A stretch of DNA of 64,000 nt from Oscillatoria sp. HE19RPO. Its GTDB lineage: Bacteria > Cyanobacteriota > Cyanobacteriia > Cyanobacteriales > Laspinemataceae. Positions 19,761-31,147 of this stretch are shown piece by piece. The DNA lies in NCBI RefSeq assembly GCF_024220515.1, contig NZ_JAMXOT010000051.1, forward strand, positions 1 to 64,000, in the 5' to 3' direction. The translations under genes were made by a program, and so were the position numbers. The notes beneath the pieces were generated by a model. The model saw only the letters and a list, made by a program, of their open reading frames with translations. It had not been told where the DNA came from and did no database searches. Position 1 is the first letter of the stretch; every line of letters starts with the position of its first letter.

Positions 19761-20335
19761 TGATAAATTTATCCCTCTGTCCCTACGGATTTCTTTTCTA
19801 TTCCCAGTCCCACCCCATCGCTGCATTTTTCCGATGCTGGCAGCGTGTTGCCTTCACTCTCATCAAACCTGCCTGCGACCTGGCCAGAGCCTATCCCGGG
19901 TCAATGGGGAGGCGCTCCAGCCCAATCCTAAACCGCCTCTTCTGCCACCGATATCTATCTATAGGGTTAGGAAGGGAATAGGCCGGTGCTATTCTATTTT
20001 AGAATGGGGATTGGCGCTTTTCCCTTTAAAATTGCAGATTGGGAGCCTTTTTCTTCCGGTCAAAAAAGGCAAATTTTTCACAACCGAGGGAAACCAGCAG
20101 AAAGAGGGACCCTTGATACGGAATCCGGTTGTCAAAGGTCTGCAAAAACCCGCAGGCTGAAGCCTGGGGCTATACGGACGAAGCCCGCCTGCGCGGGCTA
20201 ATACAGAAAATCGACTTTTACCAACCGGATCTGGTAACCCTGACAACCCTCCTGCTTGCTTTTGTAGTGTCTAAAAAAGTCTGTTCGCTTCCCCCCTATT
20301 CTTGTTCATAGATATCCCAGAAAGTCTAAAATCCT
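19761..20335. other. Divergent intergenic region containing a repeat element
   Basis: It separates the TPR gene from the RNase H-DnaX gene. It includes the CCGGTT-ended element at 20122-20231. The remaining sequence holds no convincing gene. Confidence 0.5.
20122..20231. mobile_element. Small element with CCGGTTG/CAACCGG ends, copy 1
   Basis: The element starts AATCCGGTTGTCAAAGGTC and ends CAACCGGAT. Its core contains the hairpins GCAGGCTGAAGCCTG and GCCCGCCTGCGCGGGC, with tatacggacgaag between them. Related cores occur at 26746-26833, 28008-28068, 30986-31147 and (degraded) 52393-52525. Confidence 0.7.
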
Positions 20336-28001: not shown

Positions 28002-28007
28002 AAGGAA

Positions 28008-28140
28008 TAGATTAACCGCACCCTAAAGGGTGGGGCTATACGGACGAAGCCCGCCTGCGCGGGCTAATTTTTAATTAAAAATTCCTAGGGAATGCGAGCA
28101 TCTTGCTCGCTATTGTTCTTTTCGTGCAAGATGCTCGCAC
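28008..28140. repeat. Repeat cluster between the DRTGG and NACHT genes
   Basis: A GCAGGCT-type core (28014-28066; ctatacggacgaagcccgcc) is followed by two hairpins of the GCGAGCA/TGCTCGC family (28094-28114 and 28125-28138). The apparent upstream extension of the NACHT frame lies in this repeat and is not coding. Confidence 0.8.
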
Positions 28141-28178: not shown

Positions 28179-30812
28179 ATGTCAAATCAGCAAAATCGAT
28201 TTTTTCGGTATCTTCGGTTGGCGTTTGTGGCCCTGGCATTTGTTCTCTATCCTTATTTTATCAACCAACTGCCTCCCTTGCCGGAGTGGATAGGGAATGT
28301 GCCAACCCCAGTGGCAATTTGTGGGGCGATTGTTTTTGCCCTCATTGTTGTGGTTGGACCGGAATTATTAAATGTAAAAGAAACGCCCCCGGAAGAGTTA
28401 TGGCGTAAACTTCTGCAAGAGAATCAGAAACTCATTAACGATCGCCTGAAAAATTCGCTGGATCAAGACAGCCATATTCCTATCACCACTATTGATTCTC
28501 CGGGTGATTTGGAACGACCCCGAAGGAAAGCGCCTCAAGAATCATCCGTCAAGGGGTGGAGAACGTGGTGGCAAAATTTGCAGCCTTCCGCCAGTTTACC
28601 AAAAGCGATCGCTGATAAATTGCCTCTAATCAAAACTCGGCGAAATTTGGAGAATTTACAGACAGAAGAAGTCACCCAATTATCACCCAGTAAACCGATT
28701 GTAGAGATTTTCAAGGAAGCCAACAAGCGTTTATTAATTTTAGGAGAACCGGGTAGCGGCAAAACGACAGAATTGCTAAAATTAGCCCAAGCATTAGGAG
28801 AAGTAGCCGAGAACAATCCCAAAGAACCTATCCCATTTATTTTTGAGCTTTCTGCTTGGCGGGGAGAAAGGATGCTGGATTGGATGGTGGGAGAAATAGT
28901 GGCACAGTATGGACTAAATCCAAAGTTATGCCGGGAGTGGCTGATTTTTGACCGCATTGTGCCGTTGCTTGATGGTTTGGATGAGTTGGGAGAGGAACGA
29001 GCAAAAGAAGCAATTCGGGCGATCGATGCATTACAAGCGGATTATCACAATCAGCAAAAGGCATTAGTTATCTGCTGTCGAGTCACAAACTATGAAAGAA
29101 TCACCGATAACAACCGTCGTATCCGTTTAAAGGGAGTCGAACGAGCAGTCAGGCTTTGTGAATTGACTGATGACCAGATTGAAGGGTATTTAAAGCAGCG
29201 TAAAGCAGAACATATTTGGGATGAACTCCAATCCAATTCTGGGTTAATGGAGTTAGCGCGGAATCCCATGTTATTAAACCTTATGCCTATTGCTTATCCG
29301 GATGAATTACCAGACAACCTTCCTCAAAACTCCCAAGATTTCCAAAGCCGACTGTTTGACGCCTTTTTGCATCGAAAACTCTCTTCAACCCTTGCAGGCT
29401 ACGACCCAGAAAAAACTAAATATTATTTAGCATGGTTGGCTGCAAGTATGGGCCGAGAAGATATTAATCAACGGGAGTTTTTGATTGAAAGGCTGCAACC
29501 AAATTGGCTAGAAACTCAAAAACAGCGAAATCAATACTCAAGGATTAATAAGCTGATACTTGGACTGATTGGAGGACTAATTTCAGGACTGATTTTAGGG
29601 CTGATTTTAGGGCCTGTTTATGGGCTAATGGGCGGGCTGATTTTAGGGCCTATTTACGGGATAATGGGCGGGCTGATATCTAATTTTGATTCTATTGACT
29701 TAATAGAAAAATTTGATATTTCTGGGAAAAATTTGAAAAGGGCATTTCTTGTGGGTTTATACTATTCAGTCATTTTAGGAATCTTTTTAGGACTGATATC
29801 ATGGTCATATTACTGGCTAATTGGAGGGTTAGTTTACGGACTTAATTACGGGCTGATTGAAGGCTTAAAAACCGACATTAAAATTAGAAAGTTTCCTAAT
29901 CAAGGAACCAGAAAAACTGGTTGGAACTCTCTAATCACAATGGTAATCGCTATTCCTTTTTGTTTCTTAATTTGGATTGTACCTCGTTGGGCTACAGGAC
30001 AGGATTGGGACTGGACTGGAACCTTGAGTGTGGGAGGATTTTTGGGCATTTTCTTTGGGTATTACCTTGGCGGTGGGAAGGCATTTATTCAACACTTTAC
30101 TTTGCACTGGGTGTTGTGTCATCACGGACGCATTCCCCGAAATTATGTTCACTTTCTGAACGAAGCAAGTGCCTGTGGTATTTTAAAGCAATCTGGGGGC
30201 CGATATCGGTTTTATCATGATAAATTCCGAGAGCATTTAGCCTTTACCATTCAGTTGAAAGTTGAGCCAGTATCATCCCGTAAAAAATATAATTTTTTTG
30301 GAGTTTCTTTACAGGAGATAGGAATTGTATTTACCGCGATTTTATTAGCGGTAATTCTGACTAACACTTTTGGATTTAACCCCGATTCAGTGAGTGCCAT
30401 GAATCCGCTCATCCAAACTAGCGATCGCGTTTTCTTCGATCGCCTAACCTATCCTCGATGGCGACAGCCCCAGCGCTACCAAGTTATTAGTTTTGCAACT
30501 AAGAACTTAGAAGAGAACTTCTCCAAGCACTTCGCCTCTCGCCGCATCCTTGCCCTGCCTGGTGAAAGGTTAGAAATTAGCTCCGGTCAAATCATTCTCA
30601 ATGGCAAACCTTTGGATGATAACCGGATAAAACTTCCCTCGGATTTCAACCAGTCACTCATTACCCTCGCGACTGATGAATATTATGTGGTGGCAGACAA
30701 TTTGAATTATGCCAATTTTGAAACCTTTGGCGCGGTAGTTCCTCAGCAGAAGATTAGAGGTCAATTAATCCTGCGTGTTTACCCCTTCGATCGCCTTGGA
30801 CTGATTCGCTAG
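28179..30812 (+). CDS. Membrane NACHT ATPase with C-terminal inactive signal-peptidase-like domain
   Basis: An 877-residue protein. Two membrane helices lie near residues 8-65. A NACHT-type NTPase follows: Walker A ILGEPGSGKTTELL (about 189-202), Walker B PLLDGLDELGEERA (near 264), then LVICCRVTNYE. A Gly/Leu-rich region (about 461-504; GLIGGLISGLILGLILG) and further helices look membrane-embedded. The last 140 residues follow a final helix and resemble type I signal peptidase (TSDRVFFDRLTYP, RILALPGERLEI, NGKPLDD, EYYVVADN). The Ser of the usual SMEPT box is Ala (SAMNPL), and the Lys before RxxxLPG is Arg, so it is probably catalytically dead. NACHT proteins are often anti-phage sensors. Start ATG 28179 has a gagggg ribosome site; the frame is open to 28092 inside a repeat. 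Confidence 0.85.
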   Translation: MSNQQNRFFRYLRLAFVALAFVLYPYFINQLPPLPEWIGNVPTPVAICGAIVFALIVVVGPELLNVKETPPEELWRKLLQENQKLINDRLKNSLDQDSHIPITTIDSPGDLERPRRKAPQESSVKGWRTWWQNLQPSASLPKAIADKLPLIKTRRNLENLQTEEVTQLSPSKPIVEIFKEANKRLLILGEPGSGKTTELLKLAQALGEVAENNPKEPIPFIFELSAWRGERMLDWMVGEIVAQYGLNPKLCREWLIFDRIVPLLDGLDELGEERAKEAIRAIDALQADYHNQQKALVICCRVTNYERITDNNRRIRLKGVERAVRLCELTDDQIEGYLKQRKAEHIWDELQSNSGLMELARNPMLLNLMPIAYPDELPDNLPQNSQDFQSRLFDAFLHRKLSSTLAGYDPEKTKYYLAWLAASMGREDINQREFLIERLQPNWLETQKQRNQYSRINKLILGLIGGLISGLILGLILGPVYGLMGGLILGPIYGIMGGLISNFDSIDLIEKFDISGKNLKRAFLVGLYYSVILGIFLGLISWSYYWLIGGLVYGLNYGLIEGLKTDIKIRKFPNQGTRKTGWNSLITMVIAIPFCFLIWIVPRWATGQDWDWTGTLSVGGFLGIFFGYYLGGGKAFIQHFTLHWVLCHHGRIPRNYVHFLNEASACGILKQSGGRYRFYHDKFREHLAFTIQLKVEPVSSRKKYNFFGVSLQEIGIVFTAILLAVILTNTFGFNPDSVSAMNPLIQTSDRVFFDRLTYPRWRQPQRYQVISFATKNLEENFSKHFASRRILALPGERLEISSGQIILNGKPLDDNRIKLPSDFNQSLITLATDEYYVVADNLNYANFETFGAVVPQQKIRGQLILRVYPFDRLGLIR

Positions 30813-30985: not shown

Positions 30986-31147
30986 CTATTTGCATTGTTT
31001 TCCCTCTTAGCCTGCGTAGGCAGGCTTCGTCCGTATAGCCCCAGGCTTCAGCCTGCGGGGCTATTTCTATTTGCATTGTTTTCCCTCTTAGCCTGCGTAG
31101 GCAGGCTTCGTCCGTATAGCCCCAGGCTTCAGCCTGCGGGGCTATTT
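30986..31147. repeat. 81-bp tandem duplication (GCAGGCT-type repeat)
   Basis: Two copies of an 81-base unit (30986-31066 and 31067-31147) are essentially identical and contain gcctgcgtaggcaggc and caggcttcagcctg. The end of the second copy includes the stop codon of the carotenoid oxygenase gene. Confidence 0.92.

What the first reader, a model, noticed from the sequence alone, without database searches (positions are those of the whole stretch)
28179..30812. NACHT ATPase linked to a catalytically dead signal peptidase fold
The protein combines N-terminal membrane helices, a NACHT NTPase, Gly/Leu-rich membrane repeats and a C-terminal region with signal-peptidase-I blocks. The Ser of the SMEPT box is Ala and the general-base Lys is Arg. 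NACHT proteins are known anti-phage sensors. A substrate-binding but inactive signal peptidase could sense unprocessed preproteins or phage-caused membrane damage. This architecture is new to me.
Basis: partly seen in the sequence, partly recalled or inferred. Interest (0 to 1): 0.75.

Follow-up and report, generated by a model that had tools for sequence, protein, structure and literature searches.

The report
Membrane NACHT receptor, dead signal-peptidase ectodomain
A filamentous cyanobacterium carries an immune-receptor-like ATPase whose outer tip is a signal peptidase that has lost its catalytic residues; every relative found has lost its catalytic pair too, so this housekeeping enzyme was probably recycled into a sensor, although no one has yet tested what it detects.

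Summary
Window 28179-30812 encodes 877 aa: an N-terminal membrane hairpin, a NACHT NTPase with intact motifs, Gly/Leu-rich membrane hairpins, a winged-helix-like block, one more membrane helix and a C-terminal signal-peptidase-I (S26) domain. Pfam, NCBIfam and a confident AlphaFold model agree on the S26 fold. The catalytic Ser is Ala740 and the Lys is Arg788.

The loss is family-wide. In 23 NACHT-linked S26 domains from 22 of 293 genomes of the order, the Ser is absent in all and the Lys in 19; all 29 free LepB controls keep both. The fused domains form a clade apart from LepB and are under purifying selection.

Relatives show a modular core. N-terminal partners are TIR, CHAT, kinase, cyclase or a membrane hairpin. 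C-terminal partners are WD40, TPR+ClpS, TM+Tll0287, TM+dead S26, or nothing. That is NLR logic (N-effector, NACHT, C-sensor) and places the dead peptidase in the sensor slot, predicted outside the cytoplasm. Near orthologs vary steeply there, and five have lost or disrupted it.

Best reading: a stand-alone transmembrane NLR-like receptor with a non-catalytic signal-peptidase ectodomain as sensor or decoy. Ligand, output and anti-phage role are inferred. It is a new variant of a known kind.

The parts
28179..30812 (+). Whole gene: transmembrane NACHT protein with C-terminal non-catalytic signal peptidase domain (877 aa)
   Evidence: Open frame; Pfam NACHT and Peptidase_S26 over cut-off; full-length relatives
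28218..28355 (+). N-terminal membrane hairpin, residues 14-59 (the slot that holds TIR, CHAT, kinase or cyclase in relatives)
   Evidence: Hydropathy; replacement in relatives
28713..29543 (+). NACHT NTPase module, residues 179-455
   Evidence: Pfam; invariant motif columns in alignment A2
28743..28769 (+). Walker A GEPGSGKTT, residues 189-197
   Evidence: Invariant G189, S193-T197 in 16 full-length relatives
28962..28985 (+). Walker B region PLLDGLDE, residues 262-269
   Evidence: Invariant L263-D268
29544..30068 (+). Gly/Leu-rich membrane segment (GLIx repeats; three hairpins, six helices in most relatives), residues 456-630
   Evidence: Hydropathy; 12-nt repeat units in DNA
30069..30293 (+). 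Winged-helix-like block ending in RFYHDKFREHLA, residues 631-705; predicted cytoplasmic
   Evidence: Conserved across core relatives; helices and a beta hairpin in the full-length AF2 model; positively charged loop
30303..30359 (+). Last membrane helix, residues 709-727; places the S26 domain outside the cytoplasm
   Evidence: Hydropathy, AF2 helix
30324..30809 (+). S26 signal-peptidase-I fold, catalytically dead (Pfam match starts at residue 716; domain to 877)
30396..30398 (+). Ala740 at the position of the catalytic Ser (LepB Ser90)
30540..30542 (+). Arg788 at the position of the general-base Lys (LepB Lys145)

Best explanation
The protein is a stand-alone, multi-pass membrane receptor of the bacterial NLR-like (NACHT/STAND) type. 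Its C-terminal ectodomain is a signal peptidase I that was captured once or a few times, lost catalysis, and kept its fold as a ligand-binding sensor or decoy. Proposed working: a ligand outside the cytoplasm (a signal peptide or preprotein, a signal-peptidase-targeting molecule, or a phage or competitor product) binds the dead cleft. The change passes through the last membrane helix and the winged-helix block to the cytoplasmic NACHT ATPase, which exchanges nucleotide and oligomerises. The output then goes through the N-terminal slot, here a membrane hairpin. Shown here: the domains, the loss of catalytic residues, the family-wide conservation of that loss, the modular slots and a hydropathy-based topology. 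Inferred: sensing, ligand, oligomerisation, output and an immune role.
For: S26 domain: over cut-off in Pfam and NCBIfam. AF2 model mean pLDDT 88.9. Foldseek's top hits are all signal peptidases or SipA. VIA Z is 13.4 to S. pyogenes SipA and 13.1 to E. coli LepB (tied). Dead in every copy: Ser 0/23 and Lys 4/23 in fused domains, against 29/29 for both in free LepB. All 23 fused domains are separated from LepB by one branch (support 100/100). Purifying selection: dN/dS of S26 0.17 (L018) and 0.38 (L009), beside 0.17 and 0.21 for the NACHT. Sensor slot: in relatives of the same core, the C-terminal slot holds WD40, TM+Tll0287-like, TPR+ClpS or TM+dead S26; the N-terminal slot holds TIR, CHAT, kinase or cyclase. 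Characterised antiviral STAND proteins have N-terminal effectors and variable C-terminal sensors (PMC10907252). Topology: 2+6+1 helices in five relatives, with a basic loop at the winged-helix block. Receptor-like evolution: flanking genes are mostly 91-99% identical to L. palackyanum, while 29601-30800 falls to 66-77%. S26 is lost or disrupted in five relatives. NACHT motifs are invariant.
Against: There are no functional data. The neighbours are housekeeping-type genes (glycosyltransferase, DRTGG, RPE65-type oxygenase, DUF520, CbiD), with no consistent partner gene and no defence island. PADLOC has no strong match, and NCBIfam's antiphage EruA matches only partly, at 36 bits against a cut-off of 1000. 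Five relatives have lost or broken the S26 part while keeping the core, so it is dispensable in some strains. The N-terminal hairpin has no recognisable effector activity. The full-length AF2 model is weak (pLDDT 62.9), so domain contacts are unknown. Part of the variable C-terminal stretch is simple repeat, which diverges fast without selection by invaders.
Confidence: 0.55

Rival explanations
1. Envelope or secretion stress switch, not immunity: the dead peptidase reads unprocessed preproteins or secretion load in the periplasm or thylakoid lumen, and the NACHT ATPase regulates physiology or development.
For: Chromosomal housekeeping-type neighbourhood. Relatives with kinase and cyclase outputs and with the Tll0287-like ectodomain look like ordinary signalling proteins. 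Cyanobacterial genomes hold many such proteins: 30 NACHT matches in this genome, and 292 of 293 genomes have a relative.
Against: Patchy presence (22 of 293 genomes), repeated loss between close strains and steep local divergence fit conflict better than housekeeping. TIR and CHAT partners are typical of cell-death systems.
Confidence: 0.25
2. Structural use only: the S26 fold is a dimerisation or anchoring module outside the membrane and binds no specific ligand.
For: SipA, the nearest solved dead relative, acts without catalysis, and its paper describes an octamer in the crystal (PMC4049620). The conserved fold core does not itself prove ligand binding.
Against: The same slot carries ligand- or partner-binding domains in relatives. 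Some relatives with the same core lack the module, so it is not needed for the core's architecture.
Confidence: 0.12
3. Decaying passenger: an old fusion whose peptidase part is no longer under selection.
For: Losses and in-frame stops at the junction in L011/L021, L025, L026, L049 and L053.
Against: dN/dS well below 1. Conserved fold and own invariant residues across families. Free of stops in most members over large divergence.
Confidence: 0.05
4. A still active peptidase with an unusual catalytic arrangement.
For: Four members keep the Lys, and four have Thr at the Ser position.
Against: No member keeps both residues. The replacing residues differ between subgroups (A, G, M, T, I). The box E Gly-Ser-Asp support is not conserved either.
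Confidence: 0.03

Closest known systems
Bacterial NLR-related NACHT proteins (bNACHT25, EruA, HyoA and kin)
   Same: Central NACHT NTPase, single gene; partial NCBIfam match to EruA. bNACHT25 is proposed to guard a host proteostasis factor, DnaJ (PMC12169576), which is the same idea as monitoring host machinery.
   Different: Here the protein is multi-pass membrane with TM hairpins between the NACHT and the winged-helix block, and its predicted sensor is a dead signal peptidase outside the cytoplasm. No phage assay exists for it.
S. pyogenes SipA (signal-peptidase-like pilus assembly factor)
   Same: Signal peptidase I fold without the Ser-Lys dyad; best structural match, Z 13.4, tied with LepB (PMC4049620).
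   Different: SipA is free-standing, acts in Gram-positive pilus assembly, has Asp/Gly at the dyad and is not linked to an NTPase.
Cyanobacterial signal peptidase I (LepB)
   Same: Same fold; clear sequence kinship, and likely source of the domain.
   Different: LepB keeps Ser, Lys, Gly272, Ser278 and Asp280 in 29 of 29 copies; the fused domains lost the dyad.
STAND and EACC-type conflict systems of multicellular bacteria with variable C-terminal domains
   Same: Constant NTPase or adaptor part with exchangeable C-terminal sensor domains, some extracellular behind TM helices (CHASE2 in PMC8195603; PBP in PMC7159879; lectins in PMC10907252).
   Different: The term 'signal peptidase' does not occur in the main text of these three papers.
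Plant NLRs with integrated decoys (NLR-ID)
   Same: Conceptual: a copy of a host component is built into an NLR as bait (PMC4246468, PMC4759852).
   Different: Analogy only; no pathogen molecule that targets signal peptidase is known here.

Membership tests
NACHT-clade STAND NTPase | NACHT domain over curated cut-off | tested here: met
   PF05729 31.1 bits vs 26.7
NACHT-clade STAND NTPase | Intact Walker A and Walker B | tested here: met
   GEPGSGKTT and LLDGLDE, invariant or nearly so in alignment A2
NLR-like receptor | N-terminal effector slot, central NTPase, C-terminal sensor slot | tested here: met
   Met for the family by comparison: TIR, CHAT, kinase, cyclase at the N-terminus; WD40, TPR+ClpS, Tll0287, dead S26 at the C-terminus. 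The window protein's own N-terminal hairpin is not a known effector.
NLR-like receptor | Ligand-triggered oligomerisation | not testable with these tools
   Needs biochemistry
Anti-phage NACHT systems | Protection against phage | not testable with these tools
   No experiment; PADLOC shows no strong match
Anti-phage NACHT systems (EruA equivalog) | NF058535 score over cut-off | tested here: not met
   36.3 bits vs 1000
Type I signal peptidase (S26) | S26 fold and profile | tested here: met
   PF10502, TIGR02227, AF2, Foldseek and VIA
Type I signal peptidase (S26) | Ser-Lys catalytic dyad | tested here: not met
   Ala740 and Arg788; Ser absent in 23/23 fused copies
SipA-like inactive signal peptidases | S26 fold without the dyad | tested here: met
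SipA-like inactive signal peptidases | Pilus locus, free-standing protein | tested here: not met
   NACHT-fused; no pilus or sortase gene among the window neighbours scanned
Integrated-decoy NLR | Integrated domain derived from a host protein | tested here: met
   Kinship with LepB shown
Integrated-decoy NLR | An invader molecule binds both the host protein and the decoy | not testable with these tools
   No binding data; no phage signal-peptidase inhibitor seen in one paper search

The most novel reading that the evidence does not exclude
A bacterial integrated decoy: signal peptidase I, an essential exposed enzyme, was copied into a transmembrane NACHT receptor, stripped of catalysis and kept as bait, so that any invader molecule or condition that engages signal peptidase outside the cytoplasm trips an internal NACHT response. 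ClpS-NACHT relatives would be the cytoplasmic counterpart, using another proteostasis component.
Probability: 0.25. Interest if true: 0.85.

Novelty: new variant of a known kind. Interest (0 to 1): 0.62.

Why it matters
The bacterial NACHT defence proteins described in the papers read here sense from inside the cell. A membrane NACHT whose sensor is a dead, once essential secretion enzyme facing outward would mean that bacteria monitor the secretion pathway with an NLR-like switch. It would also offer a simple testable case of the decoy principle, known from plants, in a prokaryote. Relatives of the core occur in almost every genome of the order that was searched, so one worked-out member would help to read a large uncharacterised family. 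On the practical side, profile models name this protein 'signal peptidase I' (TIGR02227), which is misleading.

Tried and rejected
Active peptidase: rejected on the dyad and box E. Decaying passenger: rejected on dN/dS and breadth.

Partner genes: the open frames around seven other S26-bearing genes show no gene that recurs next to them, by eye, so a multi-gene system is unlikely.

Mobile or viral origin: no relative by tblastn among viral contigs. On plasmids, only NACHT cores and free LepB copies turned up, with no place covering both, which is not proof of absence.

Full-length AF2 was too weak to read domain contacts. Bacteria outside cyanobacteria were not searched for the fusion, apart from the plasmid collection and the few candidate stretches. 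Papers: no hit joins NACHT, signal peptidase and cyanobacteria, and the two hits for prokaryotes look incidental; most subscription papers are not held.

Full report
What is there. The frame 28179-30812 (+) encodes 877 residues. Pfam places NACHT at 185-310 and Peptidase_S26 at 716-862, both over cut-off, and NCBIfam gives signal peptidase I over its cut-off. Hydropathy shows two N-terminal helices, a Gly/Leu-rich membrane part, and one helix directly before the S26 domain. The membrane part is coded by 12-nt repeat units. Walker A and B are intact and conserved in 16 full-length relatives.

The peptidase is dead. Against three free signal peptidases of the same genome, the Ser is Ala740 and the Lys is Arg788. 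An alignment of 23 NACHT-linked S26 domains with 29 free LepB copies gives Ser in 0 of 23 and Lys in 4 of 23 fused domains, against 29 of 29 for both in LepB. The four that keep Lys have Gly for Ser. Replacements differ between subgroups: A, G, M, T or I for Ser; R or M for Lys. The box E Gly, Ser and Asp are no longer conserved either. The loss is therefore a family property, not a local accident, and it means that the model name 'signal peptidase I' misleads.

The fold is kept. AlphaFold2 on residues 706-877 with 21 sequences gives pLDDT 88.9 and pTM 0.82. Foldseek's leading hits in the PDB are SpsB, LepB and SipA. VIA-align gives Z 13.4 for SipA and 13.1 for LepB, a tie, with LexA-type folds lower at 6 to 8. 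SipA is itself a signal-peptidase fold without the dyad that keeps its peptide-binding cleft and works without catalysis (PMC4049620). Codon comparison shows purifying selection on the domain: dN/dS 0.17 against L018 and 0.38 against L009, with the NACHT at 0.17 and 0.21.

How common it is. In 293 genomes of the order, a profile of the fused S26 finds 22 places at 184-233 bits in 21 genomes, then a gap down to free LepB copies at 146 bits or less. One further, more diverged copy (L098) makes 22 genomes. Not all are complete: L051 and L055 are fragments on their contigs, L052 holds an assembly gap, and L049 and L053 have one in-frame stop between core and S26. The 23 fused domains form one group apart from LepB, with support 100/100. 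On a tree of the NACHT cores the S26-bearing proteins fall into two groups, with repeated gain or loss: seven changes, six forced. Some rows scored as lacking S26 are cut by contig ends (L020, L027), so the number is an upper estimate.

A modular receptor core. Relatives of the NACHT protein occur in 292 of 293 genomes. I read the ends of about 65 of them. N-terminal partners are a membrane hairpin, Ser/Thr kinase, adenylate/guanylate cyclase, TIR or CHAT. C-terminal partners are nothing, WD40, TM + Tll0287-like, TPR + ClpS, or TM + dead S26 (one or two of each kind were confirmed by Pfam, the rest read by eye). TIR and CHAT at the N-terminus and repeat or ligand domains at the C-terminus match the effector-switch-sensor order of NLRs and of tested antiviral STAND proteins (PMC10907252). 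By position, the dead peptidase is the sensor. This is inference from comparison, not a test.

Topology. Five relatives show 2+6+1 helices; others, the window protein included, score fewer because single helices fall under the threshold. An even number before the winged-helix block leaves NACHT and winged helix on the same side. The loop that holds the winged helix is rich in Lys and Arg, as expected inside. One more helix then puts S26 outside, which is where active signal peptidase also works.

Local evolution. The locus is syntenic in related strains. Against L. palackyanum the flanking genes are mostly 91-99% identical in DNA, the NACHT part 84-91%, and 29601-30800 only 66-77%, with a return to 97% in the next gene. 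In G113 the S26 is 95% identical in protein while the N-terminal hairpin is only 58%, so parts of the gene have separate histories, as in recombining receptors. S26 is deleted in D2d (L011/L021) and in L025, partly deleted in L026, and cut off by one in-frame stop in L049 and L053. This fits a costly, exchangeable sensor, but also a dispensable one.

Surroundings. Neighbours are a glycosyltransferase, a DRTGG protein, an RPE65-type oxygenase, DUF520, DUF202, CbiD and a TPR protein. Seven other S26-bearing loci show no recurring neighbour by eye. It looks like a single-gene system outside defence islands. No relative was found in viral contigs. Plasmids carry the NACHT core but no place covering both core and S26 was found.

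Mechanism proposed. Outside ligand binds the dead cleft; the last helix and the winged helix relay; NACHT switches and oligomerises; the N-terminal slot acts. Only the architecture, the loss of catalytic residues and the slot pattern are shown. Candidate ligands are signal peptides or preproteins, signal-peptidase inhibitors, or phage products. The decoy reading is supported by the ancestry of the domain and by the ClpS fusions, and in spirit by bNACHT25, which is proposed to monitor DnaJ (PMC12169576). No binding partner is known.

Place among known things. It is a NACHT STAND NTPase by motif and profile, an S26 fold by structure, not a signal peptidase by catalytic residues, and not shown to be anti-phage. 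Extracellular variable domains behind TM helices are known in other conflict systems (CHASE2 in PMC8195603, PBP in PMC7159879), so the principle is known and the sensor is new. I found no paper that describes it, within a library that lacks most subscription journals.

Noticed in passing
L105:1000-3384, L107:1009-3429: Same NACHT core with a C-terminal TPR plus ClpS domain (Pfam ClpS E 4.5e-15 in L107; L105 similar by eye). L107 keeps LNDDF and HREG, the ClpS pocket motifs as I recall them. A second housekeeping proteostasis domain in the sensor slot.
   Followed up: partly
L059:349-3054, L060:839-3622: Same core with a C-terminal membrane helix and Tll0287-like ectodomain (E 4e-30 and 2e-26) holding a CxxCH motif: another predicted outside sensor.
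   Followed up: partly
L099, L108, L104: Same membrane NACHT core with N-terminal TIR or CHAT domains, likely cell-death effectors.
   Followed up: partly
window 29541-29863: GLIx membrane repeats are 12-nt DNA repeats that vary in number between orthologs, likely by slippage.
   Followed up: partly
window 30986-31147: Exact 81-bp tandem duplication just downstream of the gene; related short repeats appear near 20142-20237 and 28005-28077.
   Followed up: no
L049 near 2590, L053 near 2940: Single in-frame stop (TAA, TGA) at the junction between core and S26 in two genomes, with the S26 frame intact beyond it; pseudogene, sequencing error or switch not resolved.
   Followed up: partly
L015 (G000 C153), L080: Free LepB copies in open frames of 502 and 350 aa with extra N-terminal membrane segments and an intact dyad.
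   Followed up: no
G000 (whole genome): 30 NACHT matches at E <= 0.001 in one 7.7 Mb genome.
   Followed up: no
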